This document shows positions 8,409 through 31,240 of a DNA stretch of 64,000 bases, piece by piece. Origin of the DNA: Desulfobacteraceae bacterium (GTDB taxonomy: Bacteria; Desulfobacterota; DSM-4660; Desulfatiglandales; Desulfatiglandaceae); the NCBI GenBank assembly GCA_016844935.1, contig JAERTK010000066.1:1-64000 (forward strand), written 5' to 3'. Below the pieces are notes generated by a model, which saw only the letters and a program-made list of their open reading frames with translations, did not search any database and was not told where the DNA came from. The stretch's first letter is position 1, and the number at the start of each line of letters is the position of its first letter. The translations under genes were made by a program, and so were the position numbers.

Positions 8409-8699
8409 TTACTTGTAAGGCGGCTCCTCATAGAGCCCCTTTCGTTTCTGGAAATATCTGGAGGACGCCAGTACCGCCACAAAATTGAGCAGCGCGTAGG
8501 CCAGGGCGATATCCACAAACATGTCCAGGCGTTTATAAATCAGTCCGATCAGAAGCAGAAGGATAACGGTCTTGCTACCGATGGCATTGACGCCGATCAA
8601 GCGGTCCAGGACCGTGGGACCAAAAACCGACCGGTACAATGACGCGACCATCAGGAGACACAAAAAAAGCCCCGCATATAAAAAAACATCCGTCATCAT
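8409..8699 (-). CDS. mrpF: Na+/H+ antiporter subunit MrpF
   Basis: A 96-residue protein with three hydrophobic helices. The segment RSVFGPTVLDRLIGVNAIGS, followed by a helix and then LDMFVDIALAYALLNFVAVL, is the MrpF/MnhF signature. The conserved aspartate of helix 3 (FVDIALAYALL) is present. The start overlaps the stop of mrpE by 4 bp. MrpF packs with MrpE and MrpG at one end of the complex. The length is normal and no anomalies are seen. Confidence 0.92.
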   Translation of the reverse strand: MMTDVFLYAGLFLCLLMVASLYRSVFGPTVLDRLIGVNAIGSKTVILLLLIGLIYKRLDMFVDIALAYALLNFVAVLASSRYFQKRKGLYEEPPYK

Positions 8700-9277
8700 T
8701 CGTCCTCAAAAGCCCTTGCGATCCTTTTTTCCATTTCCCCGGGAAGGGGTTCTCCGGATTCCTTGTCAATGGCATGCACCTGGAAGGCACCGTTCACAGA
8801 AACATACACGGTGATGGTACCCGGGGTCAGGGTAATGGAGTTGGCAAAGGTCACCAGGGAAAGCTCTTTTTTAAGCGTGCTGTCAAAACGAACAATCTGC
8901 GGGTCGATCAACTCCATCATTCGGGGATGAAACACCAGATACAGAACATGCAAGTTGGCCAAAACCACCTGGTACAGCAGCCACGGAATATAGCTGATCA
9001 CATGGATGCACCGCCGAAACAGGCCTCCGGTCTTTGATTGGGGAAACAGAAGGTCACCCGAAAAAACAGTTACAATGACGCATGAAATAAGCCCAAGGCC
9101 CATGTGAAACCAATCAAATTTTCCGGATAGAATCACCCAGAGGCACAACAGGGTAATGAAGGTCAGAATACGGGATAAAACGGGTCTTGGGATGGAATGT
9201 TCAGACGGGTCGCCGAGGCTGGTGCCGGGCGGTTTTTCAGGGTGGAGAGTTCTAGCTTCTGCAGAATGTTCCTTCAA
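8696..9277 (-). CDS. mrpE: Na+/H+ antiporter subunit MrpE
   Basis: A 193-residue protein, first gene of the antiporter operon. It starts with TTG at 9277, preceded by AGGGG. A polar N-terminal tail of about 34 residues is followed by two hydrophobic segments, an amphipathic region and the MrpE signature FANSITLTPGTITVYV near residue 145. Its C-terminal half is cytoplasmic in known Mrp structures. The gap of 84 bp to the upstream histidine kinase has no clear terminator, so transcription from the kinase genes may continue into the antiporter genes. The N-terminal tail is longer than in most MrpE proteins, so a later start is possible. Confidence 0.9.
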   Translation of the reverse strand: MKEHSAEARTLHPEKPPGTSLGDPSEHSIPRPVLSRILTFITLLCLWVILSGKFDWFHMGLGLISCVIVTVFSGDLLFPQSKTGGLFRRCIHVISYIPWLLYQVVLANLHVLYLVFHPRMMELIDPQIVRFDSTLKKELSLVTFANSITLTPGTITVYVSVNGAFQVHAIDKESGEPLPGEMEKRIARAFEDE

Positions 9278-9361: not shown

Positions 9362-10528
9362 TTAAGAAACCGGTAGTCGGACTGTGAACGTGGTCCCTTC
9401 TCCCGGTTCACTTTCAAACGAAAGACTCCCCCCTAAATTTTTGATGATATCGCGGCTGATGGGAAGGCCCAGGCCCGTTCCCTTGCCAGGTGGTTTGGTC
9501 GTATAAAAATATTCGTAAATGCTTTTCTGATCCTTTTTGGAAATACCGATACCTGTATCGGAAATGTTGATCTCCACCACGGGGGACCCCAGGGCATCAT
9601 CCAAAAAAGTTTCAAGCGTAATTCGACCCCGCTTTTCCCCCTTCTCCTTTACGGCATAAACAGCATTGGAAATGAAATTCACGAAAACCTGTTCCAGCAA
9701 TTGCTTGTCGGAATTGATAAAAACAGGGCCCTCCACGAAATTATATACAATTTCAACATCCGTGAATTTCAATTCGGGGGTCAATAGACTGACGGTCCCT
9801 TTAAGGAGTTCGTGGGCATCCAGGGATGCGGTGGCCAGTTTTGATTCGCGGACAAAACTGAGCAGTTGACCGGTAATGTTCCGGCACCGTTTGGTCTGTT
9901 CGCCGATATGCCGAACCGAAGTTTTGATCTCCTCACGATCTTCCTCGTCCAGCCCTTCGGCATCGCTGGCCACGGCGCCGATCCAGCCGGAAATCTCCCC
10001 GATGACCGCCACGGGATTATTCAGTTCGTGGACGATTCCGGAAGCGATACGCCCTACCTCCGCCAGACGGTCCACCCGGATGAGGTCTTCCTTGAACTTC
10101 TTCCAGGCCGTGATGTCCCGACACACCCCCACCAGGCCCATGACCATTCCGTGGACGTCGGTAGAAGGCGCCAAAGCCACTCGACAATAGACGATGCGGC
10201 CGGTTTTGTGCCGAAAAGAGATTTCGTCACGGACAGCGTCCTTCTTTTTCAAGCATTGAACCGCCAGATTCTCAAAATCATGGGGGTCCTCAGCCAGGTC
10301 TTTCATTTTCCGACCAGAGAGTTCCTCCCAGGTGTATCCCAGCGCCGATTCTCCCCCTTTGCTGAAAGAAACCAGCACACCATCCGAATCCGCCCTGAAA
10401 ATCATATCCCTTGAATTTTCAAGAACGTCTTCCAGATAGCTTCTGGTCCCATGAAGCGCCTCTTCCTGCTCGAGAAGGGCCTCATTGGCTTTTTTCAGTT
10501 CTGCCTGGAGTGTCTCAGGAGATTCCAT
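9362..10528 (-). CDS. Soluble PAS sensor histidine kinase
   Basis: A 388-residue cytoplasmic kinase without membrane segments. A short coiled coil (residues about 5-30) leads to a PAS domain (about 30-155). Next come a HisKA domain with the phospho-accepting histidine in GIVHELNNPVAVIGE (about residue 173) and a HATPase_c domain with N box NFISNAVYAV, G1 box DTGIGI and G2 box GKGTGLGLPIS. Its ATG overlaps the stop of the kinase-like/REC gene by 14 bp, so the two are translationally coupled and probably a cognate pair. A decayed copy of its 5' end lies at 19005-19095, next to a duplicate of the REC domain. Confidence 0.92.
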   Translation of the reverse strand: MESPETLQAELKKANEALLEQEEALHGTRSYLEDVLENSRDMIFRADSDGVLVSFSKGGESALGYTWEELSGRKMKDLAEDPHDFENLAVQCLKKKDAVRDEISFRHKTGRIVYCRVALAPSTDVHGMVMGLVGVCRDITAWKKFKEDLIRVDRLAEVGRIASGIVHELNNPVAVIGEISGWIGAVASDAEGLDEEDREEIKTSVRHIGEQTKRCRNITGQLLSFVRESKLATASLDAHELLKGTVSLLTPELKFTDVEIVYNFVEGPVFINSDKQLLEQVFVNFISNAVYAVKEKGEKRGRITLETFLDDALGSPVVEINISDTGIGISKKDQKSIYEYFYTTKPPGKGTGLGLPISRDIIKNLGGSLSFESEPGEGTTFTVRLPVS

Positions 10529-11645
10529 AAACCTCTTGTAATTTATTCATGGCCTTTTTAACACCCCTGGTCCCGAGACCTGAGCGGTAGATTTCTTCCA
10601 CTTCTTCTCTGAATTTGGCGTTTTGCAACTCCATTTTGGTCTCATAGGCCTCATTGATGGTCTCCAACAGATCCTCGTATTCAACGGGCTTAAGCAAATA
10701 CTTAAAGGCATGTTCCCGACCGCTTTCCAGGGCCGAATCGATGGTTCCGTGTCCGGTCAGGATGATGCTCTGGATAAAAGGCTGGATCTGCTTCAGTCTC
10801 TTCTGGGTCTTGACGCCGTCCATGCCCGGCATTTTGAGGTCCACAACGGCCACATCAAAATCATCACTATTAGCCGCCTCAATGGCTTCCTCGCCTGAAA
10901 AAGTAGCCTTCACCGAGTATCCTTCCCTTAAAAGGCGTTTTGAAACATATTCAACAAGGGTTTCTTCATCATCAACCAGAAGAACTCGGATATCGGACTT
11001 TTCGCTCGCGGCAAAGGACTCTTTGGGAAAGGTTTTATCGGTGATCATGGTATGTACAATTTTTAAGGCTTTTTGCAGGTCAATCTTTCCCATATTCAGC
11101 ACTAAATGGTAGAGAGCCGGGTCATTGAAATCCTTTTTCATCAAATTCTGGTACAGTTGTTTCCGTCGTTTATCTTCATTTTTCACAAGCTGAGTAGCGG
11201 GCCCTTCCATCATTTTATGATGTTCCATCATAAATTTGACCCGGTTTTCGAATTCATCAATCATAAAAATATGGAAGGCATCAGGATGATCATCCAGAAT
11301 ATACTGACTTCCCCTGCCCAGAATAACCACATTACCCTCATCGGCGATTTGAGCAATAATCAGGACCATGTAGTCCAAATATATTTGTTCATCAAGATAT
11401 CCACGTTCATCCGAGAGTACGCGATCCAACCATCGCTTTGAAACCATTTTTGATACAAGTCTTGATAATTTACTGCCTGCTTCCTTTTCAAATGATCTTA
11501 TCCATTTTGCGGATACGTTGGCCTCTTTGGCGAGCCTTTGGATAATATCATTATCAGCAAAGTCGTAACCCAATTCATCAGCGATCATCATACCTAAGGC
11601 TTTTCCACCCGTACCAAATTGCCTGGAAATGGTTATTACCGCCAT
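10515..11645 (-). CDS. Cytidylate-kinase-like domain fused to response-regulator receiver
   Basis: A 376-residue protein with an unusual domain pair. Residues 1 to about 195 are a cytidylate-kinase-like P-loop domain: the start MAVITISRQFGTGGKALG has the glycine-rich loop, and VVILGRGSQYIL resembles this family. Residues about 218-335 are a receiver domain with acidic patch VDDEE, phospho-acceptor aspartate in VVDLKMPGMDG and switch lysine in YLLKPVEYEDL. A C-terminal helical tail follows. ATG at 11645 has an excellent site, AGGAGG with 7 bp spacing. Phosphotransfer from the coupled histidine kinase could control the nucleotide-binding domain. Whether that domain still phosphorylates CMP or another substrate is not known. 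The REC part is nearly the same as the lone protein at 19082-19576. Confidence 0.9.
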   Translation of the reverse strand: MAVITISRQFGTGGKALGMMIADELGYDFADNDIIQRLAKEANVSAKWIRSFEKEAGSKLSRLVSKMVSKRWLDRVLSDERGYLDEQIYLDYMVLIIAQIADEGNVVILGRGSQYILDDHPDAFHIFMIDEFENRVKFMMEHHKMMEGPATQLVKNEDKRRKQLYQNLMKKDFNDPALYHLVLNMGKIDLQKALKIVHTMITDKTFPKESFAASEKSDIRVLLVDDEETLVEYVSKRLLREGYSVKATFSGEEAIEAANSDDFDVAVVDLKMPGMDGVKTQKRLKQIQPFIQSIILTGHGTIDSALESGREHAFKYLLKPVEYEDLLETINEAYETKMELQNAKFREEVEEIYRSGLGTRGVKKAMNKLQEVYGIS

Positions 11646-11835
11646 GAAATCCTCCTGTTGAATCTTTCTAATTGGATCTGAACGATTATGGTAAAGTAAT
11701 TTACCGATTTGATCAATTAATTTTGACGCTGGACCTGATTAACCGGTCCTGAAAGCAAGAAATTTCCCGCCCTCTACCCCCATTCACTGCCGAATCCCAG
11801 GTCTTGACGGAGGGCTATGCCTTGGGATCGGGGAA
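11646..11835. other. Intergenic stretch with two inverted repeats
   Basis: About 190 bp separate the lone response regulator (ending 11836) from the start of the kinase-like/REC gene (11645). Two inverted repeats are visible. GGTAAA/TTTACC at 11690-11705 with a 4-base loop lies 45 bp upstream of the ATG. GGACC/GGTCC at 11731-11749 has a 9-base loop. Neither is followed by a T-run on the minus strand, so they are not convincing terminators. The first could be a regulator site. No promoter of good quality was found here. Confidence 0.35.
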
Positions 11836-12228
11836 TCAACCCAAAGCTTCTTTAATCCTGTTGGCCAGCGCTTCGGCTTCAATCGGTTTTTCCAAGTAGA
11901 CTTCCGGTTCAGGAACCTCAGCACCACCGAATTGGGTCAGGGCTTTTTGGGAGCGCAGAAAAGTACTCTTTGCGATTCCTGAAAGGAGAATAATTGGGAT
12001 ATCCTTCAACGATTTGTCGGTTACGAGTTCCCGATACAATCTAACCCCACTCTGTTTAGGCATCAGAACATCAAGGATAATCAGATCAGGTTTCTCTTTC
12101 TTTGCCATTTTAAGGCCTTCTTCCCCGTTTTCAGCCTCAATAGGCGTATAACCGCTTTCCTCGACAATGCTTTTATTAAGCATCCTAATATCAGGGTCGT
12201 CATCCACAACAAGCACTTTCTTGCCCAT
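11836..12228 (-). CDS. Single-domain response regulator (CheY-like)
   Basis: A 130-residue receiver domain with no output domain. The acidic pair is in VLVVDDDPDIRM, the phosphorylatable aspartate in LIILDVLMPKQSG (about residue 55), the threonine/serine position in IILLSGIAK and the lysine in YLEKPIEAEAL. I chose ATG at 12228 because the ribosome-binding site GGAGG is 8 bp upstream; the ATG at 12234 lies too close to it. It lies 57 bp after the 838-residue sensor kinase on the same strand and is the likely phosphate acceptor of that kinase. It probably acts through protein contacts. Confidence 0.92.
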   Translation of the reverse strand: MGKKVLVVDDDPDIRMLNKSIVEESGYTPIEAENGEEGLKMAKKEKPDLIILDVLMPKQSGVRLYRELVTDKSLKDIPIILLSGIAKSTFLRSQKALTQFGGAEVPEPEVYLEKPIEAEALANRIKEALG

Positions 12229-12285
12229 TATCATCTCCTCCCAAAGTTTTTCCTAAATTTCAGCATCATCTGGACGACTACTCGA

Positions 12286-14802
12286 TCATTCTTCTTTTTC
12301 AGTTTCAAACGGCAACCGGATGGTAAAAACCGACCCTTTTCCCAGCTGGGATGTTACGTCTATTATTCCGTGATGTTCTTCTACGAGTTTTTTGGTGACA
12401 AGGAGTCCCAAACCGGTTCCGTCGCTCCCTTTTGTGCTAAAAAAAGTGGTAAATAACTTCCCCTTCGCCTCTTCACTGATGCCAGAGCCATTGTCTTGTA
12501 CTTCAAATCGGACGATATTGTCATTTTCAGGGGTGACCGTTATGTTGATTCGGTGCTGATTATCAGGATTGTGATCAGAAATGCAGGCATCAATTGCATT
12601 GGACATCAGATTTGAAAGGGCCCTGTGTATTGTTCGAGGATCCATTTTTACCTTGCCAACGGGCAAGGGAAAATCTTTATGGATTTCGATCATATTATCA
12701 CGCCCCACCTCTGTAAAAAGCCCGCATACTTCATCCACAATATCATTCGGGAAACAGGTTTCATATTCAGGCTCTCTTTCTTTGGAGTAGGACAGCAGGT
12801 CCAGCACCAGGTCGGATGTCCGACTGATGTTTCGCTGTATCATCTGCCACCCATTTTTTAACTTATGGGTGTCATTTTTGTCAAGTCCCGCATTTATCAA
12901 ATAGCCCCCTCCCTTGAATCCATGAAGGATGTTTTTGATGTCATGGGCCGTACCTGCGACTGTTTGACCAATAGCCGCTAAACGTTCGGATCGAACAAGT
13001 TCGCTTTCTAATCGTTTTATTTCTCTGAGATCCTGAAAAAAGGCGACACTGCCCATCACCTTATTATGTTCGTGAAGCAAGGTTCCAGAAAATCTCACGG
13101 GAATGATTTTCCCATCCCTTCGCACGATGGAGGTCTCTTTCCATGGACCTTCTCCGTCGGTGCGCTTTTTGTCGTATCCCTTTTCGATGGTCTCTATTAT
13201 TTGGGGAGGATAAAGTGTCCTGACATCAAGCTTCTTAATAACTTCATCGCTGGAATAGCCGAATAGCTCCTCCGCTTCCCGATTAAAAATTACAATCCGC
13301 CATTCTTCATCTGTTGCGACAATACCATTGGTAGAATTTTCGATAAGCCGGGCTTGGAATTTTGCGTCCCTTCGCAACTCTTCCTGGAGCATGGAGTTTT
13401 CCATAGCCACACCGATTCTGTTCGCCAACAATTCCAAGATGTGTTTTTCCTCAAGGGAAAAATGTTCAGGTTTTTTGCTCCCCACCATGATAATACCAAA
13501 TATTTCACCCCCTTTGGCAATGATAGGTGCGTAAGCCGCCGCCTTTAATCCTTCACTTCCTAAGGATCTGAGTTCTTTGTCACCACAATGCTCCAGATCC
13601 CCCAGGATCGTAAGCTTACCGCTTTGGGCAACACGAGAAAAGATACTGTTCTCATGGGTAATCCCATACGTTTGAAGGAATCTTTCAGAACACCCGTAAC
13701 TGTATCCGGGTTGATAATTGCCATCATCTTCAGGGACAAAGATGCAAATCCCATCAGCTTCCAGGATATCATTTGTTTCCTGAATAGCGGAAATTATTCT
13801 ATCTGAAAGATCCAGCGGCGCATTCAGTGCCCCATATATTGAACAAAGTGTGGCAAGTTCTCTTATATGACGTGTCTGCTCTTCTTCAGCCTTTTTCTCT
13901 ACAGTTCTATCCCAAAGGGTTTCAATGGCGCCAACTATTTCACCGTCAGGGGATTTGATAGGGGCCGCTGTGAAAAAAAGCCATTTGCCCTCTTCTCCAA
14001 TATGGGGAAAAAATTCCTCGGCCTCAAAGGCCTCTTCAATCAAAGAGGATCTATTCCACTTGGTGCCATAATACTTCCAGGCTTCATGCTCTTTCATTCC
14101 ATTCAGCACAAGATCCGCCATAATAGGGCGCTCTTCCGATCTGAAAGGTTGCCAATGATGATTGGTCCCTATTATTTTTCCGGCGGGATAGCCGGTCAGC
14201 TTTTCACATGCCTTGTTCCAGTGGGTAACAATATGGTCTTTGTCGATAACAAACGTCGGAATCGTACTTCCCTCGACGACCTGAGAGATTGCCCTTTCCC
14301 GGGCCGTTAGTTCGGCGCGTATCCCTTGTGAATACTCGTTTCTCTCCTTGGAAATTTTCAGGAAAAAATCACAAAACTGCTCAAATAAATCTTCAATTTT
14401 TTCAATGTTGTTTTGGCTGTCCCGAATTTTCTTCAAGACCGATGTTTTTTCCCCTTCGATTTGCAGATAATCCAATACGGATCGAGCTTCAAAATGATCG
14501 AAAAATCTGATCCCGGAGGGTGTGGATCTTCTGATGTCACCGCTGAGGTCGTCATCCTTGGTCAACTCTATTATTGAATGGAGATTCTTTAATTTGAACA
14601 ACCTACTGTAGTCATTCGTTGTAAAAATCCCGAGTTTCCTGGCGTATTTTAGCCCCATAGCCTGATCATCTATATCCGCCACCCCTGATACGGTGAAGTT
14701 TTTCTGTCTGAAATTCTCGCTTGACAGAATCTGCAGAATTACCATGCAGATCCTCCCACCTCCAACGATGGCGATATTTGAACCCAGTAAAGTTCCAATC
14801 AT
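12286..14802 (-). CDS. Rossmann-PAS-GAF-PAS sensor histidine kinase
   Basis: An 838-residue cytoplasmic sensor kinase. Residues 1 to about 125 look like an NAD(P)-binding Rossmann domain of the TrkA-N/dehydrogenase type (NIAIVGGGRICMVILQIL, then SGVADIDDQAMGLKYA), which is rare at the head of a kinase. A PAS domain follows at about 175-290, with PTFVIDKDHIVTHWNKACEK. Then come a GAF domain at about 315-465, a second PAS domain at about 475-590, HisKA with GTAHDIKNILHGFKG, and HATPase_c with DNGSGI and GTGLGLLVTKK. ATG at 14802 follows AAGGTGA. It is followed by its likely partner response regulator. It lies directly downstream of the Fo operon on the same strand. Confidence 0.9.
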   Translation of the reverse strand: MIGTLLGSNIAIVGGGRICMVILQILSSENFRQKNFTVSGVADIDDQAMGLKYARKLGIFTTNDYSRLFKLKNLHSIIELTKDDDLSGDIRRSTPSGIRFFDHFEARSVLDYLQIEGEKTSVLKKIRDSQNNIEKIEDLFEQFCDFFLKISKERNEYSQGIRAELTARERAISQVVEGSTIPTFVIDKDHIVTHWNKACEKLTGYPAGKIIGTNHHWQPFRSEERPIMADLVLNGMKEHEAWKYYGTKWNRSSLIEEAFEAEEFFPHIGEEGKWLFFTAAPIKSPDGEIVGAIETLWDRTVEKKAEEEQTRHIRELATLCSIYGALNAPLDLSDRIISAIQETNDILEADGICIFVPEDDGNYQPGYSYGCSERFLQTYGITHENSIFSRVAQSGKLTILGDLEHCGDKELRSLGSEGLKAAAYAPIIAKGGEIFGIIMVGSKKPEHFSLEEKHILELLANRIGVAMENSMLQEELRRDAKFQARLIENSTNGIVATDEEWRIVIFNREAEELFGYSSDEVIKKLDVRTLYPPQIIETIEKGYDKKRTDGEGPWKETSIVRRDGKIIPVRFSGTLLHEHNKVMGSVAFFQDLREIKRLESELVRSERLAAIGQTVAGTAHDIKNILHGFKGGGYLINAGLDKNDTHKLKNGWQMIQRNISRTSDLVLDLLSYSKEREPEYETCFPNDIVDEVCGLFTEVGRDNMIEIHKDFPLPVGKVKMDPRTIHRALSNLMSNAIDACISDHNPDNQHRINITVTPENDNIVRFEVQDNGSGISEEAKGKLFTTFFSTKGSDGTGLGLLVTKKLVEEHHGIIDVTSQLGKGSVFTIRLPFETEKEE

Positions 14803-15084
14803 TCTTTCACCTTGTGCATTATATTTGGACCCATGCCCAAAATATCACAAGAAAATTAAACAAGCAATAACAGTCAACTCATCTAAATGGAAAAAAGGAT
14901 TTAAAGATCTCTTTGTGAATGATTTGATCAGCAGGCCACCCAAGTTAAACAAATCCCCATCCCAACTCACTTGTTTTCCGGCGAACAACTGCCGATCAAG
15001 CCGTTGGCGTGCGGGATCTAATCCGGCCTATTTCCTAACCTATATAAGCCAAAGTACCGTGTAGCGGTACGTCCTAGCTCAGTT
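14803..15084. other. Intergenic stretch between Fo operon and Rossmann kinase
   Basis: 282 bp, AT-rich next to the kinase gene. Nothing in it codes convincingly. Near the end of the Fo operon there is a short hairpin (15054-15070). Near the kinase gene there is a possible minus-strand promoter: TTGCTT at 14862-14867, a 17-bp spacer and TATTTT at 14839-14844. It matches the consensus only in part. A kinase-specific promoter would uncouple the kinase from the ATPase operon. Confidence 0.3.
15054..15070 (-). terminator. Possible terminator hairpin after the Fo operon
   Basis: An inverted repeat GTACCG/CGGTAC with a 5-base loop lies 14 bp downstream of the atpF stop codon. On the minus strand it is followed by only three T residues, so it would be a weak intrinsic terminator. 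Its position at the end of the operon is the main support. Confidence 0.35.
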
Positions 15085-15690
15085 CTAACTCAGGTGTTGT
15101 TTGGTGGTTTTCAAGTCATTAAGGAATTGATTTACGATAGTATCGTTGTCTTTTGGGGAAAACCCTTTTACAAGTGCCTTCTCAACGGTTGAAAATGCGC
15201 GGTCTATCATTTCATCCGCCAGAACTTTCTTGGCGTTCTGAATCCTGCGCAGTGCATAATTTTTTGCATCTTCAATCATATTTTCAGCCGCTTTTTTACC
15301 CTCTTCGATATGCTTTTCTTTTTCGTGTCTCCCCAATTCAAGGATATCTGCTCTAATTTTATCAATCTGCGCTTGGATATTCTTTAATTTATCTAATTCT
15401 GCATCTCTAAGGGATGTTGCACGGTTGAGTTGCGTCTCGACTTTATTCAGGCCCGACTCAACATCATTCCGGGCACCGCGCAGAAAATCCATAAGCGGCT
15501 TTCTGCCGTATTTGATGAAAACGAAAACCAGGATTCCAAAATTAATAAACAAGAGGGCATTATCCCACAGCTTTCTGCCGGAGCTCAATTCTTCGGCAGC
15601 GAAAACTTCCGCATCAGGGGCAAAAATCCAGCACACCCCAAGCAATAGTATTATCTCTGCAAGAATAAATTTGTTAGTTTTCAGATTCAA
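15085..15690 (-). CDS. atpF: ATP synthase Fo subunit b
   Basis: A 201-residue b subunit. TTG at 15690 is preferred because GGAGGAGG lies 7 bp upstream; TTG at 15696 or 15720 would extend it slightly. The N-terminus has two hydrophobic stretches: a signal-peptide-like one (FILAEIILLLGVCWIFAPDA) and the membrane anchor (LWDNALLFINFGILVFVFIK). A long charged helix that dimerises in the stalk follows. This form with an N-terminal signal-like segment is common in Deltaproteobacteria. The gene overlaps b' by 17 bp and is the last gene of the operon. No delta, alpha, gamma, beta or epsilon gene follows. Confidence 0.88.
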   Translation of the reverse strand: MNLKTNKFILAEIILLLGVCWIFAPDAEVFAAEELSSGRKLWDNALLFINFGILVFVFIKYGRKPLMDFLRGARNDVESGLNKVETQLNRATSLRDAELDKLKNIQAQIDKIRADILELGRHEKEKHIEEGKKAAENMIEDAKNYALRRIQNAKKVLADEMIDRAFSTVEKALVKGFSPKDNDTIVNQFLNDLKTTKQHLS

Positions 15691-16117
15691 CCTCAAGCCT
15701 CCTCCCGAGCATCTTCTCAATTATCCCTTCGGCCAGGACAGTTACCTGATCATGCATCAACGGACGCGCCAACGCTACTTCCCTGTCCGCCTCTTTGTCC
15801 GTTTCCGCCTTTATTCCTGCGGTTTTTTCCTTATAACGCTCCAGCAATTCGTTTGTTTCTGCAATACCCGCCTCCCTCAGCTGGGTCCTCTCTTGGGTGG
15901 CGTCGCTCCTTGCCAGTTGTATTTTCGACACGAAGCTCTCTTTCAGCACTTCGGTCTTGTCCCGGGCTTCATCCACTCCCTTTTCTGTTTTCTCAATATG
16001 CTCATTCCTCTCATCCATCAGCCTCAAAATAGGCCGGAACATGAAGCGATTCAGGATGTAGAGCAGGATAAGGAAATGGATCACTTGGATGACTAAGGTA
16101 GCATTGATGCTTATCAT
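15674..16117 (-). CDS. atpF': ATP synthase Fo subunit b'
   Basis: A 147-residue b-type stalk subunit. The N-terminal membrane helix (LVIQVIHFLILLYILNRFMF) is followed by the family motif RPILRLMDERN and a long charged coiled coil (residues about 35-140). Two different b genes in tandem (b and b') are usual in Deltaproteobacteria and photosynthetic bacteria and form a heterodimeric stator. It starts 13 bp after the stop of the single c gene. No anomalies are seen. Confidence 0.9.
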   Translation of the reverse strand: MISINATLVIQVIHFLILLYILNRFMFRPILRLMDERNEHIEKTEKGVDEARDKTEVLKESFVSKIQLARSDATQERTQLREAGIAETNELLERYKEKTAGIKAETDKEADREVALARPLMHDQVTVLAEGIIEKMLGRRLEVESEN

Positions 16118-16130
16118 TATTTAGTACCGC

Positions 16131-17408
<1,278 letters not shown>

Positions 17409-17412
<4 letters not shown>

Positions 17413-18083
17413 TTAACCTGAACAGATACATATACAAGGGTTAACATCGTAAAAACAAACGCTTGAATTGTCCCAATAAACAGACTGAAAAAACAAATCA
17501 GCAAAGGGGGAAGAATCAAGCTGTAAATCAGGTGAGAGACAACAAGAATAATGATTGCCCCGCCCAATATATTACCGTACAAACGGAATGAAATCGATAC
17601 AACTTTCGCTATTTCACCAATAATGTTCAAAGGGGCCATGAAAAAGATCGGTTCACAATACTCCTTGAGATATTTTTTTAACCCTTTCGCTTTTATGCCG
17701 GAGTAGTGTGCAATGACGAAACCCAAAAGGCCCAGCCCAAGCGGTGTGTTTAGATCTTTTGTCGGTTCGGAGAGCTTCGGGAAAATACCCAGCCAGTTGC
17801 TCACAAGAAGGAACATGAAGAGGCAGCAGATCAGGGGAAAGTATTTCTTGGCCATTTTTTCGTCCAAGGCGTCCCTTGTCAGATCATAAAAAGCAGTCAC
17901 AAATAATTCCCCGACGACCTGAAACGGGTTGGGCACAAAAGCAATCTTACGCGTCGCCAGGAAACCAAACCCGATTAAAACCGCCATGGCAATCCAAGTC
18001 ATTAAGATTGTAGTTGTGTTAAAAACCAGATCAACACCCAGAAGACTCAGCGTGAACTGGGGTATGTTTGTAAGATCTTCCAT
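17409..18083 (-). CDS. atpB: ATP synthase Fo subunit a
   Basis: A 224-residue a subunit. I use ATG at 18083, which starts 7 bp after the stop of the upstream gene and is preceded by CAGGAA; the in-frame TTG further upstream lies inside that gene. The essential arginine is present in SISFRLYGNILGG, so the ion channel should work. Other family features are FPLICCLFMFLLVSNWLG and the C-terminal helix pair. The a subunit forms the two half channels facing the c ring. Its 3' end overlaps the fused c gene by 4 bp, which implies coupled synthesis. Confidence 0.93.
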
Positions 18084-18090
18084 TTCCTGT

Positions 18091-18489
18091 TTACCTTTTT
18101 TCCAGAATGAGCTTGATGGCCAGGTGATCAACCATTATCACAATCTGTACGGCAAAAATTCCCACCACCACCGCAACAAAATTAAATGAAGTATTATACT
18201 TAATCCCTATTACCAGGGGTATTGCCAGAAAGAAATATCTCAGAAGAATTGACATAAACCCCATCGCATTCGCTTTTGTCCGGGACCTCCCTAATATCCT
18301 GGGAATGGACTGCCCCATAAGGAAAAAGTTAACGATACTGAAACATGTGCCTAACACAATCCCTTTAGCAATAGATCTTTCGTGAAAAAAGAGGAAAACA
18401 AAGGCCAAGACAATGGCACATGTCATGGCCCAGAAACAGATTCTCCTTTGAAATCGATCAACTCCCTCTTTCTGGTTTGCCGTCTCCAT
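18091..18489 (-). CDS. AtpI/AtpR-like small membrane protein of Fo operon
   Basis: A 132-residue protein with four hydrophobic segments, resembling the ATP synthase I chain. AtpI-type proteins act as assembly factors for the c ring; the related AtpR of N-type ATPases is thought to help ring formation. ATG at 18489 lies within the 3' end of the preceding gene, directly after AGAAGG. An arginine-rich loop (GRSRTKANAMGF) separates helices 2 and 3. It lies directly before the a subunit, as usual for AtpI-type genes. Exact family (AtpI versus AtpR) is not certain. Confidence 0.8.
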   Translation of the reverse strand: METANQKEGVDRFQRRICFWAMTCAIVLAFVFLFFHERSIAKGIVLGTCFSIVNFFLMGQSIPRILGRSRTKANAMGFMSILLRYFFLAIPLVIGIKYNTSFNFVAVVVGIFAVQIVIMVDHLAIKLILEKR

Positions 18490-18727
18490 CCTTCTGGGTT
18501 ATCTCCATTATCTGCCGGTAGACAGTATAACCTCCGCCTATAATCCCCAGCAAAATAAACAGGGTGATAAAAAGGCCTTTCGTGTTAAGCCATTTATCCA
18601 GGTAATAACCGATGGCAAAGCAAAACAGAATCGACCCCGCCATTGTCAGACCGAGCTGCGATACAATGACAATATCTTCAGTCAATTTGATGTGCTTTTT
18701 AAAATTTAATATTTTAGCCACTTGCAT
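18458..18727 (-). CDS. AtpZ/AtpI family F-ATPase assembly protein
   Basis: An 89-residue protein with two hydrophobic helices. The family pattern is visible: a glycine-containing first helix ending in FAIGYYLDKWLNTKGLF, then LLGIIGGGYTVYRQI. AtpZ/AtpI-type proteins accompany Fo genes and assist c-ring assembly. The start is uncertain: ATG at 18727 and GTG at 18775 both lack a good ribosome-binding site. It is the first gene of the operon, about 190 bp downstream of a near-consensus promoter, and its 3' end overlaps the next gene by 32 bp. Confidence 0.78.
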   Translation of the reverse strand: MQVAKILNFKKHIKLTEDIVIVSQLGLTMAGSILFCFAIGYYLDKWLNTKGLFITLFILLGIIGGGYTVYRQIMEITQKDGDGKPERGS

Positions 18728-18913
18728 TGTGTTCGGACAGCAGATTTGAAAGAAAGGCAAACTGGCGACGAACACTTCTATCGGTTACTCAAAGAAAGAC
18801 AGAGCCTATCTTTTCCCGCACCCGAAAGGAGATTTCCAATTCCACCCGCTTGATCCAGAAAAACAATCTGGCCATAATACCGGTGTCAACCGATTATCTC
18901 TGTGCGGCGCCAA

Positions 18914-18942
18914 TCTATAGATAAATACATGTCCAATGTCAA
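18914..18942 (-). promoter_or_regulatory. Sigma70-type promoter of the Fo operon
   Basis: On the minus strand TTGACA (18937-18942) is followed by a 17-bp spacer and TATAGA (18914-18919). The -35 box is perfect and the -10 box matches at five of six positions. Transcription would start near 18907 and leave a leader of about 180 nt before the first Fo gene. No other promoter of this quality is near. Confidence 0.75.
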
Positions 18943-19004
18943 GGGGAAAAATCGCACCGATGAGAATTTCGTGGACATCCAGAATTGCGGTGGCCGGGAT
19001 TGTG

Positions 19005-19095
19005 ACGTCCCGGGTCCGATGAAGGGTCTCCTATTGCTCAGAAACGGTCCAGGTTGCATTTTTCAGTCTGCCTGGGGTGTCTCACGAGATTCCAT
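19005..19095 (-). pseudogene. Decayed 5' fragment of a PAS histidine kinase gene
   Basis: Reading from ATG at 19095, the DNA aligns for about 90 bp with the first 90 bp of the histidine kinase gene starting at 10528. It first encodes MESRETPQAD, compared with MESPETLQAE. A one-base deletion then gives a frameshift, and an early stop codon follows. The ATG overlaps the stop of the response regulator by 14 bp, exactly as in the intact pair at 10515-10528. The remnant ends before the promoter of the Fo operon. It shows that a whole regulator-kinase pair was copied and that the kinase was then lost. Confidence 0.8.
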
Positions 19096-19576
19096 AAATC
19101 TTTCGTAATTTATTCATGGCCTTTTTAATACCCCTGGCCCCGAGACCTGAATTGTAGATTTCTTCCACTTCGTCTTTGAATCTGGCGTTCTGCAACTGCA
19201 CTTTTCGCTCATAAGCCTCACTGATGGTCTCAACCAGATTATCATATTCAATGGGCTTGAGCAGATACTTAAAGGCTTCCTCCTTTCCACTTTCAAGGGC
19301 CGTTTCGATGGTCCCATGACCGGTGAGAACAATGCATTGGAGAAAGGGTTGGATTTTCTTGAGCCGCTTCTGGGTCTCGACCCCGTCCATACCCGGCATT
19401 TTCAAGTCCACAACGGCCACATCAAAATCATCACTATTGGCCGCCTCAATGGCTTCCTCGCCAGAAAACGTGGCCTTAACAATGTATCCTTCCCTCAAAA
19501 GACGTTTTGAGAGGTATTCAACAAGGGTTTCTTCATCATCAATGAGTAGGACTCTGATATCGGATTTTTCGCTCAT
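19082..19576 (-). CDS. Response regulator (REC only), duplicate of the REC domain at 10515-11645
   Basis: A 164-residue protein, nearly identical to the REC domain and tail of the kinase-like/REC fusion. The acidic residues are in LLIDDEETLVEY, the phosphorylatable aspartate in VVDLKMPGMDG and the lysine in YLLKPIEYDNL. The cytidylate-kinase-like part is absent. DNA upstream of the ATG still resembles the linker of the fusion gene (shared stretch AAACCTTTCCC), and its ribosome-binding site AAGGAG comes from former linker codons. The cognate kinase copy next to it is decayed, so phosphate may come from the intact kinase at 9362-10528. It lies upstream of the Fo operon. Confidence 0.9.
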   Translation of the reverse strand: MSEKSDIRVLLIDDEETLVEYLSKRLLREGYIVKATFSGEEAIEAANSDDFDVAVVDLKMPGMDGVETQKRLKKIQPFLQCIVLTGHGTIETALESGKEEAFKYLLKPIEYDNLVETISEAYERKVQLQNARFKDEVEEIYNSGLGARGIKKAMNKLRKIYGIS

Positions 19577-19842
19577 AACAGACGGCTCCTTCGGGAAAGG
19601 TTTAGGGATTGGAATGGTTACTTTGAAAGAGACGGAATACTTCTCTTGGTGAACATACTTGCCAAAATATTACTTTGTCAACCATTTTATAGCCGATTAC
19701 GAATATGCATGTTCCACCCTGATCCTGAAACCCCGGGTTGGGGATGGGGCGGCCTCCCCTTCCGTAATTTGTACTTTTGGCTTGCATCCATGTGGTGTGC
19801 TTATCCCGGCAGTAATACCTGTGACGGTGCGGAAGATTCCCA
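19577..19842. other. Intergenic stretch upstream of the lone response regulator
   Basis: 266 bp between hdrB-like (ending 19843) and the response regulator (start 19576). It holds the linker remnant described for the regulator and one probable promoter at 19652-19681. No coding frame or clear terminator for the Hdr genes was seen. Confidence 0.4.
19652..19681 (-). promoter_or_regulatory. Probable sigma70 promoter of the lone response regulator
   Basis: Minus strand TTGACA (19676-19681), 18-bp spacer, TATGTT (19652-19657). The -35 box is perfect; the -10 box matches at four of six positions. Transcription would start about 70 bp upstream of the ATG. It would separate the regulator from the Hdr-like genes upstream. 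Confidence 0.45.
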
Positions 19843-20709
19843 TCAGTCGATGCAATCAAGGATGGGTGAGATGTCTATCTGGTTTTTCCAGATGCCCAGG
19901 ATATTGGGGTCTATACCCATTGAGAGCCCCAGGAGCTGGGTGAAAAGTATGGTCGGCATGGGTTCGGTGATACTTCCCTCGTCCAGGAGACGCTTCTGCA
20001 CCCTGTCGAACTGCACATGACAATAGGAACAGGCAAGACAAAGATAGTCTGCGCCGGATGCTCTGGCATTTTCGATCTTTTTTATGGTCAGTGCTGCCGA
20101 GAGACCGTCATCGATGCCCCACATGGCGGAACCGCAACACTCCGGCTGCAGATGCCAGGGCACAAGGTCCGCCCCGGTCATGCCCACCAGCTCGTCAAAA
20201 ACAGCGGCGGTTCCCGGCCCGGTGAACTGAACCAGGTCTCTCGGGCGGAGGATGTGGCACCCGTAGTGGACGGCAACTTTTAATCCCCTGAACTTTTTGA
20301 CGATATTCTCTCTTATGCGCACAGGCCCCAGGTCGTCGTGAAACACTTCCATGATGTGTCGGATCTCAACACCCCCTTCATATTTCAGCGCTTCCTTTTC
20401 AAGTTTGCCGTTGATTTCGGCACTGAGGGGTCTGTCCGCTCTGAGTCGTTGATTCACCTCCTTCAGGGTGCCATAGCAGCAGTTGCAGAAGGTCATAATG
20501 TTGATCTTTTTCTCCTCAGCAATGGAAAGGTTCCTTGCCGAGGCAAGCACGTGGGCTTTGTAGTCGTAGTTTTTTAGAGGATAGCCGCAGCAGTTGAGGG
20601 CCTCGTCGGTCAACTGCACCCCGAGCCGCCCAAGGATCGCATCGGTTGAGGTCTCATATTGTTTGAGAAAGATGGGGGTGGTGCAACAGCGTTGAAGTGC
20701 CAGTTTCAT
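19843..20709 (-). CDS. HdrB-like heterodisulfide reductase subunit (CCG domains)
   Basis: A 288-residue protein with two cysteine-rich CCG domains. The first has CCTTPIFL, CCGYPL and CNCCYG (residues about 8-80). The second has HYGCHILRP, CCGSAMW and CLACSYC (about 155-235). In HdrB this pattern holds non-cubane [4Fe-4S] clusters that reduce disulfides. ATG at 20709 overlaps the stop of the upstream membrane subunit (ATGA) and follows GGAGAAAGATC. The two gene products should form one complex that passes electrons from the membrane to a cytoplasmic disulfide or thiol partner. The natural substrate in a bacterium without coenzyme M is unknown. Confidence 0.9.
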   Translation of the reverse strand: MKLALQRCCTTPIFLKQYETSTDAILGRLGVQLTDEALNCCGYPLKNYDYKAHVLASARNLSIAEEKKINIMTFCNCCYGTLKEVNQRLRADRPLSAEINGKLEKEALKYEGGVEIRHIMEVFHDDLGPVRIRENIVKKFRGLKVAVHYGCHILRPRDLVQFTGPGTAAVFDELVGMTGADLVPWHLQPECCGSAMWGIDDGLSAALTIKKIENARASGADYLCLACSYCHVQFDRVQKRLLDEGSITEPMPTILFTQLLGLSMGIDPNILGIWKNQIDISPILDCID

Positions 20710-22478
20710 GATCTTTCTCCTGTCCGGCGGTTTTGGTTTTTCATGCGTGCCACCGCAAGGTTTTTCAGCTCGGTCAGCACATCCGTCACCTGAACCTCCT
20801 GCGGGCAGGCATCCTGGCACTGGTAGCAGCCAAGACAGTACCAGAGCATCCGGGACCTGAAAGCCAGATCGGGCACACCCAGGGCTATTGTGCGTATGAT
20901 CTGATGGGGTGTCATGCCCAGGGCCTCGCGAGGGTTCTCGTAGTTCCGAACCACGGGACAGACCGACGTGCAGGTGATACAGGTGAAACAGTAGGAAAAG
21001 GTCGATCCCTTGGCCGAAGAGAGCATTTGTTTCTTGAAATCCCTGTCCATCTGGGCCGGCTTGATGGAGTCGTCCGGGTTGGACAAAGCGGAGCAAACCG
21101 CTTCAATGCCGACCATGGGTTGTTTTTGGGCTTGGCGATAATCGGCCCTCGGCACGGTGGGACTCAAGAGCCCCCTGTACATGGAAAACGGTGTGAGGAC
21201 CAGCAGTTCGGGATATCCCCGTTTCAGCACCGCCTCTCTCACATCAAACCACAGCTCCTGGAGGTTGATGCCCGCGGGGCAAACCATTGTGCAACGATAA
21301 CAGTTGGTACATAGATAGAGGCCTTCCTGAATGACAATTATCTGGTATTCATTCAGTGGTTTTCCCGAGGCAAGGGCTTTGAGGGAGGTGATCTTCTCCG
21401 ACGGTAGGATGTTCGGGTTTGGGATTTCTTCAAAAACGACCGCCAGGGAGCATCGGGAGGTACAGCTCCCGCAGTGGGTGCAGGCATCCAGGGCCATCAT
21501 CTGCAGGGTGATGATATTTGCCGGGTGGGATTTCCCCTTCTCCATGACGCTGTTTATAACCAGGTTCAAGGGGGTTGCCAGAATGTGAAACAGTCTGCTG
21601 AAAGGGAGATAGGCAAGGCCCACAAAACAGGTGAGAAAATGGATGGTCCACAATAAGGTGACAAGCCCCGACCGATCCAGGGGAAGGGCTACGGGCCGAA
21701 GGATGGTGGCGGCTCCATAGCTTATGAAAGCCCACTGGGGGCGGGAGTGGCAGGCGGCACAGTTCATTTCGTGCAATTCACGGCCTCGGGTGAGCAGGTC
21801 TTTATCAAAGGGGGGGGTGAGATTCGGGGGAACCACGCCGAAATCGTTCACCCACAAGGCTTCCAGAGCCTTCAGGTCCTGTTCCTCGTCAAAATCCGCA
21901 TAATCCGTCACCATCTGGGAATATCGCTCAAAGGAAACGATTTTTGCGGCTTCAAGAAAGAGTCCCGATATCATGATTACGGCGAGGAGGATTAGGGCAT
22001 ATCGATCCATGGCATTGGTGGAAAAACGGGGGGTCTTTTGGATAAACCTGCGGTAAAAGGCAATCCCGACGCCTACAAATACCAGAAGTGCAAAGAAATT
22101 CCTCAGAAAAAGAAATGGGTTCAGCGTGGCGGCATAATCCCTAAAGAGATTTGAGGTAAGCATCCCTTCCAGGGCATGCATCAGCAACAGCAGCGTAAAG
22201 CCCCAGAACATGCACATGTGCATGACCCATCGAAGTGGGCTTTCCCGCATGACTCTTCGCTGGCAGAAAACATCCAGCAAAAGACTCTTAAAGAGGGTGA
22301 TGACTTTGCCGCTAAGAAGGGTCTTCACAATACCGCCCATGGCGGCGAAAAAGCGTTCCCTTGCCGTAAACGGTTTTGTTCCTGACTCAAAGTTATAGCG
22401 CAACCAGGTGCTTATCTTGAAAATAAGACCCAGGGTAAAGATGATCAGTGACAGATAGAGACTGATATGGAAGATCAT
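20706..22478 (-). CDS. HdrE/HdrC-like membrane Fe-S protein with c-type heme motif
   Basis: A 590-residue membrane protein. I use ATG at 22478; the upstream extension reads through a terminator hairpin. The N-terminal half has about five hydrophobic helices with histidines fit for b-type heme (LRWVMHMCMFWGF, LLWTIHFLTCF), like the NarI/DsrM family. Between helices is a CxxCH heme c motif, CAACHSR, at about residue 239. The C-terminal half has four CxxCxxC-type cluster motifs: CTHCGSC, CTNCYRC, CFTCITC and CLGCYQC, at about residues 336, 392, 498 and 549. This is like two HdrC modules in a row. It probably exchanges electrons between quinol or a periplasmic cytochrome and HdrB, with which it is coupled. 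Confidence 0.87.
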   Translation of the reverse strand: MIFHISLYLSLIIFTLGLIFKISTWLRYNFESGTKPFTARERFFAAMGGIVKTLLSGKVITLFKSLLLDVFCQRRVMRESPLRWVMHMCMFWGFTLLLLMHALEGMLTSNLFRDYAATLNPFLFLRNFFALLVFVGVGIAFYRRFIQKTPRFSTNAMDRYALILLAVIMISGLFLEAAKIVSFERYSQMVTDYADFDEEQDLKALEALWVNDFGVVPPNLTPPFDKDLLTRGRELHEMNCAACHSRPQWAFISYGAATILRPVALPLDRSGLVTLLWTIHFLTCFVGLAYLPFSRLFHILATPLNLVINSVMEKGKSHPANIITLQMMALDACTHCGSCTSRCSLAVVFEEIPNPNILPSEKITSLKALASGKPLNEYQIIVIQEGLYLCTNCYRCTMVCPAGINLQELWFDVREAVLKRGYPELLVLTPFSMYRGLLSPTVPRADYRQAQKQPMVGIEAVCSALSNPDDSIKPAQMDRDFKKQMLSSAKGSTFSYCFTCITCTSVCPVVRNYENPREALGMTPHQIIRTIALGVPDLAFRSRMLWYCLGCYQCQDACPQEVQVTDVLTELKNLAVARMKNQNRRTGERS

Positions 22479-22555
22479 GGTTGTTTTTCCCGCTCCCTCC
22501 GAAAACGCCCGTTGGGAGGGAAGCAAGTATTTATCCTGGGATGTTTTTAAAATCA

Positions 22556-22577
22556 CCCTCAAGCGTTCCTTTGAGGG
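22556..22577 (-). terminator. Intrinsic terminator after metW
   Basis: A hairpin with 7-bp arms, CCCTCAA/TTGAGGG, and an 8-base loop starts 1 bp after the metW stop. On the minus strand it is followed by TGATTTTAAAAA. This should end the methionine operon before the Hdr-like genes. Confidence 0.62.
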
Positions 22578-22578
22578 A

Positions 22579-23205
22579 TTATCCGTTACGTCTTCCGATC
22601 AGAAAAACGCCATAAGTTGCTCTGAGGTTTGCAAAAAATTTTATGATATTCCCGGTTTTTTCATGATGATCCGTATTCATGGCCACTTCTCTCAGTATGG
22701 AGAAACCCGTTTTCCTTGAAAACCTCCGGAAGTCTTCTATGGAAATGACACGAATGTTCGGCGTGTTGTACCACTCATAAGGGAGTTGTTTGGTAAGGGG
22801 GGCACGACCGGTTATAAGCAGCTGCAGGCGCACGTTCCAGTGGCTGAAATTGGGAAAGCTGACAACGCCTTGTCGTCCGATGCGCAGCATGGTGCGGACA
22901 AGTTCCCCGGGCTCATATATCTGCTGAAGGGTTTGGCTCAGAATAACGTAATCAAATGCGTTATCCGGGTAGTCAAGCACCTCTTCGTTGATATCCCCTT
23001 GAAGGACCGTCAAGCCTTTTTCAATACACTTGGCCACCCTGTCCTCGTTGCGCTCTATCCCCGTGCAGGTCGCACGTTTGTTTTTTTTTAGGAAGTGCAA
23101 CAGTTCTCCCTCCCCGCAACCGAGGCCCAGGACTTTAGAGCCAGGCGCGATCAAGGATGCGATTACCTGAAGGTCAAATCGGATCTGGCTATCTTTTGAT
23201 TTCAT
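22579..23205 (-). CDS. metW: Methionine biosynthesis protein MetW
   Basis: A SAM-dependent-methyltransferase-fold protein of about 208 residues. The glycine-rich SAM motif is VLGLGCGEGELLHFL (about residues 25-40). MetW accompanies MetX in many proteobacteria and is needed for efficient homoserine acylation. LSQTLQQIYEPGELVRTMLR and FPNFSHWNVRLQLLITGRAP are strongly MetW-like. ATG at 23205 is used; GTG at 23214 is also possible. It overlaps the metX 3' end by 17 bp and is the last gene of the operon. Confidence 0.93.
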   Translation of the reverse strand: MKSKDSQIRFDLQVIASLIAPGSKVLGLGCGEGELLHFLKKNKRATCTGIERNEDRVAKCIEKGLTVLQGDINEEVLDYPDNAFDYVILSQTLQQIYEPGELVRTMLRIGRQGVVSFPNFSHWNVRLQLLITGRAPLTKQLPYEWYNTPNIRVISIEDFRRFSRKTGFSILREVAMNTDHHEKTGNIIKFFANLRATYGVFLIGRRNG

Positions 23206-25647: not shown

Positions 25648-25650
25648 ATG

Positions 25651-26097
25651 CTATCCTCCCGATTTTACAGTTTTTTTTGGACTTATTTGCTGCACAGTTT
25701 CGCCGTCTTCTTTGACGAAATCAAAATGCTGAGGGAAGCAATCGCACAGTTTGCAGATCTTGATTTTTTCCCGCCAGTCTTTATGAGCCTTGCCCATGCA
25801 GATGGTGCCGTTGATAAACCAGCACAGGTCGCCCACCTGGAACTCCCACGCCGGACATTGACTCCTCAGTTCAAAGGGGCATTTTTTCCTGTCCCAACAT
25901 GGCTCTTGATTTTCAGGGCTTCCATGGATCCTTGAGAGCAAAAAATAGAGATGCCGCTCTGCATGAATCGGAATGGACCGCCATCCCTGTTCGTAACTAT
26001 GAATCGCTTTAACCGAAGTCCCAAGCAACTGCGCCATCTGTTTCTGCGTCTTGTTCAACCTCTTTCGGAAACCCACAAATTCTTTCCTGTCCACCAT
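25651..26097 (-). CDS. Cysteine-rich XRE-type HTH regulator of the met operon
   Basis: A DNA-binding protein of about 148 residues. An XRE-like helix-turn-helix lies at about residues 10-45 (LNKTQKQMAQLLGTSVKAIHSYEQGWR). The rest holds eight cysteines in the spacing C-x5-C-x7-C, then C, C, and CKLCDC, which suggests metal or Fe-S binding. The start is uncertain: TTG at 26118 or ATG at 26097 next to GGAGGAG. The stop TAG is 3 bp before the metY ATG, so it is the first gene of the methionine operon. A long inverted repeat just upstream is probably its own operator. The signal could be sulfur or redox state, but this is inference. Confidence 0.82.
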   Translation of the reverse strand: MVDRKEFVGFRKRLNKTQKQMAQLLGTSVKAIHSYEQGWRSIPIHAERHLYFLLSRIHGSPENQEPCWDRKKCPFELRSQCPAWEFQVGDLCWFINGTICMGKAHKDWREKIKICKLCDCFPQHFDFVKEDGETVQQISPKKTVKSGG

Positions 26098-26118
26098 CTC
26101 CTCCAGGGAAATATTCAA

Positions 26119-28249: not shown

Positions 28250-28416
28250 TCTGATCCTTTCTGATTCCAAATTATGATCGAAATAACGAATGACATTCTT
28301 CAAAGCTACCCAATCCCTTGTTTTGTGTCAACGGCAATCGATAGCGTATTCAGCACGACCCAAGGATGGGGCCAGACGATCCAAATTGAAAACCTTTTTC
28401 CTGTTGACCATGGTCT

Positions 28417-28446: not shown

Positions 28447-28490
28447 TTCTGATTATTGTAAACAGGTCGGGTTATCGAGTGGACATACTG

Positions 28491-30059: not shown

Positions 30060-30078
30060 TGAAATCCCATGCATGGAA

Positions 30079-31224: not shown

Positions 31225-31240
31225 TCTTTCCTCCAGCTTA

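What the first reader, a model, noticed from the sequence alone, without database searches (positions are those of the whole stretch)
19005..19576. Duplicated regulator-kinase pair with one kinase decayed to a 90-bp relic
The REC protein at 19082-19576 is nearly identical to the REC part of the fusion at 10515-11645. DNA 3' of it reproduces the first 90 bp of the kinase gene at 10528, including the 14-bp overlap, then carries a frameshift and stop. DNA 5' of it still matches the linker of the fusion gene, so the REC gene gained its ATG and its ribosome-binding site from former linker codons. This is a readable record of how a lone response regulator arose from a fusion protein.
Basis: seen in the sequence. 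Interest (0 to 1): 0.6.

Follow-up and report, generated by a model that had tools for sequence, protein, structure and literature searches.

The report
Gene fusion beside its unfused ancestor

Summary
The lone receiver gene (19082-19576) and the receiver end of the fusion (10515-11645) are a duplicate pair (82% DNA identity over 591 bp), including the first 83 bp of the downstream kinase gene, the 14-bp overlap, a 1-nt deletion and a stop. A further 40-bp kinase piece (nt 686-725) probably survives, so the relic is a kinase gene with a ~600-bp internal deletion.

In relatives the receiver is free-standing, followed by an intact kinase in 23 of 24 genomes and then mnhE in 22 of 24 (contig ends explain the rest). 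Cytidylate-kinase-like genes are separate there too. The lone gene shares promoter, leader, ribosome-binding site and ATG with three same-genus orthologues over 112 bp. The fusion linker is that leader, decayed: AAGGAG to AAAGAG, ATG to GCG. So the fusion is derived. It sits at the edge of a ~8-kb lower-GC block (F0-type ATPase genes plus a kinase-regulator-cytidylate-kinase module) found in none of four same-genus genomes. No other fused homologue was found among 85 genomes of the order or 297 sampled from the phylum. Synonymous distance (0.59) matches the split from sister species. Moderate interest.

The parts
19652..19681 (-). Conserved sigma-70-type promoter motif of the lone receiver gene (TTGACA, 18 nt, TATGTT)
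   Evidence: 10 of 12 consensus matches; the TTGACA and the stretch after it are shared with G001, G002 and G004; the fusion copy lacks it
19577..19651 (-). Leader of the lone receiver gene with ribosome-binding site AAGGAG
   Evidence: Laid beside leaders of 19 orthologues; homology to the same-genus genomes runs to 19688-19689
19082..19576 (-). Lone single-domain response regulator (164 aa, receiver plus ~45-aa conserved tail); acceptor D57, D13/D14, T85, K107 intact
   Evidence: PF00072 5e-26; key residues; keeps all 70 columns invariant in 18 orthologues
19013..19095 (-). Histidine-kinase relic, piece 1 (start codon to nt ~84), frameshifted, stop after 10 codons
   Evidence: BLASTN to 10528-10445; translation in three frames
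18963..19002 (-). Probable kinase relic, piece 2, corresponding to kinase nt 686-725 (9843-9804)
   Evidence: 77.5% over 40 bp, E 2.6e-4; 2 of 500 shuffles
11036..18962 (-). Block absent at this place in same-genus genomes: F0-type ATPase genes, then HK2, REC2 and the cytidylate-kinase-like domain (left edge approximate)
   Evidence: GC 0.450 against 0.519 and 0.510 in flanks; G001 has receiver-kinase-mnhE with no block at the locus; AtpB matches only 33-36% in the four same-genus genomes; no cytidylate-kinase-like match at 1e-38 in them
15085..18775 (-). F0 genes: ATPase_gene1, I, a, four-hairpin c (325 aa), c, b', b
   Evidence: PF09527, PF03899, PF00119, PF00137 x4; NCBIfam c, b' and b matches
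12286..14802 (-). HK2, PAS/GAF histidine kinase (838 aa), first gene of a conserved HK2-REC2-CK module
   Evidence: Pfam; same order in L167, L168, L169, L170
11836..12234 (-). REC2, single receiver domain
   Evidence: PF00072; 62-76% identical in L167-L170
10515..11645 (-). Fusion gene: cytidylate-kinase-like domain, short linker, receiver domain with tail
   Evidence: PF13189 1.4e-48 at 3-186 and PF00072 2.7e-24 at 221-330
11007..11036 (-). Linker made from the former leader of the receiver gene; 11007-11009 (GCG) is the former ATG
   Evidence: Alignment to leaders; 0/5000 shuffles against the lone leader, 1/5000 G002, 6/5000 G004, 15/5000 G001
9362..10528 (-). Intact histidine kinase (PAS, HisKA, HATPase), H167, overlapping the fusion gene by 14 bp
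   Evidence: Pfam; 76-86% identical kinases follow the receiver in G001-G004
8696..9277 (-). mnhE, first of the Mrp-type antiporter genes that follow the kinase here and in relatives
   Evidence: PF01899

Best explanation
The ancestral operon was promoter - free-standing receiver - histidine kinase - mnhE (Mrp antiporter genes). In this lineage the receiver-kinase pair became duplicated on either side of a ~8-kb lower-GC block carrying F0-type ATPase genes and a HK2-REC2-cytidylate-kinase-like module. At the right edge the cytidylate-kinase-like gene lost its stop and reads in frame through the old leader of the downstream receiver copy, whose ribosome-binding site and ATG decayed into linker codons. 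The result is a new two-domain protein in front of the intact kinase and mnhE. At the left edge the other receiver copy kept promoter, leader and start and is still conserved, but its kinase was removed by a ~600-bp deletion and a frameshift. Working model (inferred, not shown): the one remaining kinase phosphorylates both receivers, the free one as before and the fused one controlling or clustering the kinase-like domain. Shown: gene structures, ancestral order, leader homology, intact active-site residues. Inferred: order of duplication and insertion, phosphotransfer, output.
For: Receiver-kinase order in 23 of 24 genomes fetched, with mnhE next in 22 of 24 (one contig ends in the kinase, one in the receiver). 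Cytidylate-kinase-like genes free-standing, ending at residues 203-212, in all 11 loci examined. Promoter motif and leader of the lone gene shared with three same-genus orthologues to -112. Linker against lone leader: 0/5000 shuffles. Block GC 0.450 against 0.519/0.510 and not found in four same-genus genomes. LONE keeps 70 of 70 invariant columns, the fused receiver 66 of 70. dN/dS LONE-G001 0.086, LONE-G004 0.081, fused receiver-LONE 0.175. No other fused homologue in 85 genomes of the order or 297 sampled from the phylum.
Against: The nucleotide tree puts the fused receiver just outside LONE+G001+G004 (UFBoot 89) instead of beside LONE. Forcing LONE and the fused receiver together costs 6 log units but is not rejected (AU p = 0.091), so a simple post-split tandem duplication is not proven. 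The second relic piece is short and not matched by two of five kinases tried. The genome is a fragmented assembly (342 contigs, 7.35% contamination), though both copies lie inside one 86-kb contig. Faster protein change of the fused receiver is nominally significant with outgroup G002 (7 v 19, p 0.029) but not with G003 (p 0.064) or G024 (p 0.17).
Confidence: 0.85

Rival explanations
1. One reading: the fusion came first and the lone regulator arose from it, with linker codons turning into ribosome-binding site and ATG.
For: The two sequences do match through the linker, overlap and kinase start.
Against: The unfused form with the same leader, AAGGAG and ATG exists in three same-genus genomes with readable leaders, and the lone gene shares a further ~85 bp including the promoter motif with them that the fusion lacks. 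No fusion in any other genome searched.
Confidence: 0.04
2. Integration by homologous recombination: the block arrived with a diverged receiver-kinase copy from a related species and recombined at the resident operon, so the two receivers are xenologues, not products of a local duplication. The direction of derivation of the fusion is the same (this is a rival only to the duplication step).
For: The fused receiver branches outside LONE+G001+G004 (UFBoot 89); block GC and distribution look foreign; a single crossover with a circle would give the observed order.
Against: AU test does not exclude local duplication (p 0.091); synonymous distances of the fused receiver to G001/G004 (0.64/0.71) are close to those of the neighbouring kinase (0.56/0.68); no breakpoint visible in kinase windows. 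No integrase or circle was looked for.
Confidence: 0.35
3. Both copies decaying: the lone gene is a pseudogene in waiting and the fusion a chance read-through without function.
For: The kinase relic shows decay at this place.
Against: Lone receiver keeps all 70 invariant columns, acceptor residues, promoter motif and RBS; dN/dS about 0.08 to the nearest orthologues; the fusion has stayed open over 376 codons with dS 0.59 and dN/dS 0.175 between copies.
Confidence: 0.07
4. Assembly artefact joining two strains or contaminants.
For: Assembly is fragmented with 7.35% estimated contamination.
Against: Both copies lie in one contig, about 10 kb or more from its ends; the copies differ by 18%, so they would not be confused; the linker carries decayed leader substitutions, not a raw join; right flank and lone gene both fit the same genus.
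Confidence: 0.04

Closest known systems
Duplicated HK-RR operons with later divergence (e.g. EnvZ/OmpR in alpha-proteobacteria, PMC9208753; passages seen)
   Same: A receiver-kinase pair is duplicated as a unit and the copies diverge
   Different: Here one kinase is lost and the other receiver is fused to a non-receiver domain; no insulated second pathway remains
Orphan single-domain response regulators (general class; recalled)
   Same: Receiver without output domain and without adjacent kinase
   Different: Its orthologues are not orphans: they have an adjacent kinase; the orphan state is recent and its relic is readable
Gene fusion of neighbours by stop-codon loss (general class, recalled; fusion surveys such as PMC4921024 seen only as a listing and abstract start)
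   Same: Two adjacent co-oriented genes become one frame
   Different: The leader, RBS and start codon of the downstream gene are identifiable in the linker, and an unfused paralogue with the old leader survives 8 kb away
Free-standing Cytidylate_kin2 protein of HK2-REC2-CK modules (L167, L168, L169, L170)
   Same: Same domain (58-71% identity over about residues 1-205), same gene neighbours HK2 and REC2
   Different: Not fused; the fusion adds a linker and a receiver

Membership tests
Cytidylate kinase-like family (PF13189) | Match over the Pfam gathering score across the model | tested here: met
   165.8 bits, cut-off 28, model 1-175 of 176; solved relatives 3hdt and 3fdi by sequence
Cytidylate kinase-like family (PF13189) | Nucleotide kinase activity | not testable with these tools
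   No biochemical data; the family name is no proof of CMP kinase activity
Response regulator receiver (PF00072), both copies | Domain match plus acidic pair, acceptor Asp, Thr and Lys (residue roles recalled) | tested here: met
   D13/D14, D57, T85, K107 in the lone gene and D225/D226, D269, T297, K319 in the fusion
Orthologue of the receiver of the receiver-kinase-mnhE operon | Conserved tail, leader and promoter motif | tested here: met
   Lone gene:
Functional two-component pair (lone receiver with its own adjacent kinase) | Intact adjacent kinase | tested here: not met
   Relic frameshifted; nt 85-685, which hold the H-box (H167), and everything after nt 725 missing
Functional two-component pair (lone receiver with its own adjacent kinase) | Phosphotransfer from the remaining kinase at 9362-10528 | not testable with these tools
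   Needs purified proteins

The most novel reading that the evidence does not exclude
The fusion is a new protein architecture (cytidylate-kinase-like domain joined to a receiver), found only in this species among the genomes searched, that physically joins two formerly separate two-component modules (HK2-REC2-CK and receiver-kinase-Mrp). It would place a nucleotide-kinase-like output under the kinase that belongs to the Mrp operon, while the unfused paralogue keeps the ancestral role: a natural before/after pair for studying how leader DNA becomes a protein linker.
Probability: 0.4. Interest if true: 0.55.

Novelty: new member of a known kind. Interest (0 to 1): 0.42.

Why it matters
Fusion proteins are common but the step of fusion is seldom readable, because the unfused parent is usually gone and the linker has no recognisable origin. 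Here both parents can be named, the unfused paralogue with its old promoter motif sits 8 kb away, the former RBS and start codon are still traceable in the linker, and outgroups fix the direction. It also shows how a plausible reading from one genome alone (a regulator freed from a fusion) can be the reverse of what relatives show.

Tried and rejected
Other donors for the copy inside the genome: none; all other receiver hits to the fusion in the own genome are generic, 38% identity or less, plus one cytidylate-kinase-like hit of 31%. Other CK-receiver fusions: none among 46 genomes of the family, 85 of the order (the class search returned the same 85), 297 sampled from the phylum, or 72,556 plasmid records. 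Of the 80 loci kept from the scan of 84,980 species genomes with the lone receiver as query, none has a cytidylate-kinase-like match at 1e-6; that scan kept only the best 80 of 409 relatives, and only one (L067, the same locus as L164 of G009) is a clear orthologue.

Age by synonymous change: dS 0.59 between copies (pS 0.41), against 0.50-0.53 for LONE to G001/G004 and 0.45-0.83 in ten comparisons of Mrp-operon genes with G001 and G004; an eleventh gene, HtpG, gives 1.2. So the duplication is about as old as the split from the nearest sequenced sister species and cannot be placed before or after it. Topology test inconclusive. Kinase windows show no recombination breakpoint.

A mixed protein alignment for a structure prediction seemed to align cytidylate-kinase rows across receiver columns, so no structure was predicted. 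Papers: searches found no report of a cytidylate-kinase-like receiver fusion (42 and 61 gave 0 papers) or of this Mrp-linked two-component pair (46 gave 0 papers); only listings and abstract starts were seen, and passages of PMC9208753. Nothing about absence from print is claimed beyond these searches.

Full report
What was checked. The lone receiver gene at 19082-19576 (- strand) and the 3' part of the fusion gene at 10515-11645 were aligned. One match runs from 19603 to 19013 against 11035 to 10445 (593 columns, 82.3%, E 4e-156). It includes about 27 bases before the lone ATG, the whole receiver and tail, the 14-bp overlap with the kinase gene and the first 83-84 bases of the kinase gene. 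In the lone copy a missing base shifts the frame and gives MESRETPQAD-stop. A second piece, 19002-18963, matches kinase nt 686-725 (9843-9804) in order and orientation (77.5%, E 2.6e-4). Dinucleotide shuffles reach that score 2/500 against the window's kinase, 3/500 against G001, 2/500 against G004, but 34/500 (G002) and 129/500 (G003), where the best match lies elsewhere. I take it as probable: the relic is a kinase gene with ~600 bp missing, the missing part holding the H-box, and with its 3' third gone. In the whole assembly these are the only two copies.

Which came first. The fusion protein was searched in relatives (61 genomes; 46 of the family; 85 of the order; 297 sampled from the phylum; own genome included in each). 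In every genome but this one the matches are either receiver only or cytidylate-kinase-like only. Twenty-four receiver loci were fetched. An intact or contig-truncated same-strand kinase follows in 23, and mnhE follows that in 22; one contig ends in the kinase (L161) and one in the receiver (L205). One of the 24 (L150, G003) begins inside the receiver, so its 5' end cannot be read. The rest of the Mrp-type genes follow in the same order in same-genus genomes. So receiver-kinase-mnhE is the ancestral operon, and in the window the fusion occupies the receiver's place in it.

The leader. Leaders of 19 orthologues were laid beside the lone gene and the fusion. The lone gene shares with G001, G002 and G004 a TTGACA promoter motif, the leader, AAGGAG and ATG; similarity extends to window 19688-19689, 112 bases before the ATG. 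The promoter scan scores TTGACA-18-TATGTT at 10 of 12 (a consensus match, not proof of function). The fusion shares only the last ~27 bases, as ...AAACCTTTCCCAAAGAGTCCTTTGCC GCG AGC GAA...: the former RBS is AAAGAG and the former ATG is GCG (fusion residue 213). Against shuffles of the linker the match is 0/5000 to the lone leader, 1/5000 to G002, 6/5000 to G004, 15/5000 to G001, and weaker for other genera (94/5000 G024, 713/5000 G005). Free-standing cytidylate-kinase-like proteins end at residues 203-212 in 11 loci; the fusion leaves that family at about residue 203, where leader-derived codons begin. The fusion therefore arose by loss of the stop of the upstream gene and read-through into the leader of the receiver gene.

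The block. Between the two copies lie, in order, genes for F0-type ATPase subunits (18775-15085), HK2 (14802-12286), REC2 (12234-11836) and the cytidylate-kinase-like domain (11645-11037). GC is 0.450 for 11036-18963, against 0.519 for 1-9361 and 0.510 for 19701-36000. G001 has no block at the operon, and the four same-genus genomes have AtpB matches of only 33-36% and no cytidylate-kinase-like match at 1e-38; these genomes are 75-97% complete. HK2-REC2-CK occurs as a module with free-standing CK in L167, L168, L169 and L170, and the F0 genes occur as a set in 11 loci of other genera or families, in G017 on a different contig from the module. The adjacency seen here was not seen in those loci. 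Whether the pair was first duplicated in tandem and then split by the block, or the block came with its own receiver-kinase copy, is open: the nucleotide tree puts the fused receiver just outside LONE+G001+G004 (UFBoot 89), but grouping it with LONE is not rejected (AU p 0.091).

Age and selection. dS between the copies is 0.593, LONE to G001/G004 0.529/0.501, fused receiver to G001/G004 0.635/0.711, kinase 0.563/0.679; neighbouring Mrp genes give 0.45-0.83. The duplication is thus about as old as the species split. Protein change is concentrated on the fused copy: relative to G002, 7 changes on LONE and 19 on the fused receiver (p 0.029); G003 7 v 17 (p 0.064); G024 9 v 17 (p 0.17); the stronger figures with G001 and G004 (3 v 24, 6 v 22) are not a fair test if the tree is right, since those two may lie inside. 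Of 70 columns invariant in 18 orthologues LONE keeps 70 and the fused receiver 66. Both keep the receiver active-site residues. LONE is therefore a constrained, probably working gene.

How it probably works. Shown: one intact PAS-HisKA-HATPase kinase overlaps the fusion by 14 bp; both receivers have complete phospho-acceptor sites; the lone receiver keeps the ancestral promoter motif. Inferred: the single kinase serves both receivers; the fused receiver controls or brings together the kinase-like domain; all these genes from 19.65 kb down to the Mrp genes lie on one strand and could be read from the lone gene's promoter, so the block may have come under that promoter. None of these inferences was tested.

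Comparison. [quoted passage not shown] passage seen). Orphan regulators and stop-loss fusions are known kinds (recalled). What is unusual is the legibility: both parents, the outgroups and the former start signals are all at hand. The architecture Cytidylate_kin2 plus receiver was not found elsewhere in the searches named above, which is not proof of absence.

Noticed in passing
window 15085-18775 (-), c4 at 16435-17412: F0-type ATPase gene set with a 325-aa c subunit of four fused hairpins, only the first of which keeps the Glu at the ion-binding position (AVAES; the others AVCQT, AVSQT, AVSQS; role of the position recalled). Same pattern in L189, L191, L196, L197, while L193, L195 and L200 keep Glu in two or three hairpins.
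   Followed up: partly
L189, L191, L193, L194, L196, L197 around the F0 genes; G000:C316:11218-12081: No F1 gene was recognised by eye beside this F0 set in six relatives (ORF starts only, not tested by HMM), and the own genome has a single F1 gamma match: a possible F0 without its own F1, conserved across the order.
   Followed up: partly
window 31377-33170 and L149:2661-2889, L147:3206-3291: Fragments of the AMP-binding (acyl-CoA synthetase-like) gene lie upstream of the receiver gene in G001 and G002 (88% identity), next to the HtpG homologue that in the window is at 58281-60206; the DNA between these genes and the receiver has been gained here or lost there.
   Followed up: partly
window 12286-14802, 11836-12234, 10515-11645; L167, L168, L169, L170: HK2-REC2-cytidylate-kinase-like is a conserved three-gene signalling module across two families of the order, with a kinase-like protein as the likely output; its function is unknown.
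   Followed up: partly
L150:1 (G003:C540:1): The G003 contig begins inside the receiver gene (residue 9), so its 5' end and any second copy cannot be judged.
   Followed up: no
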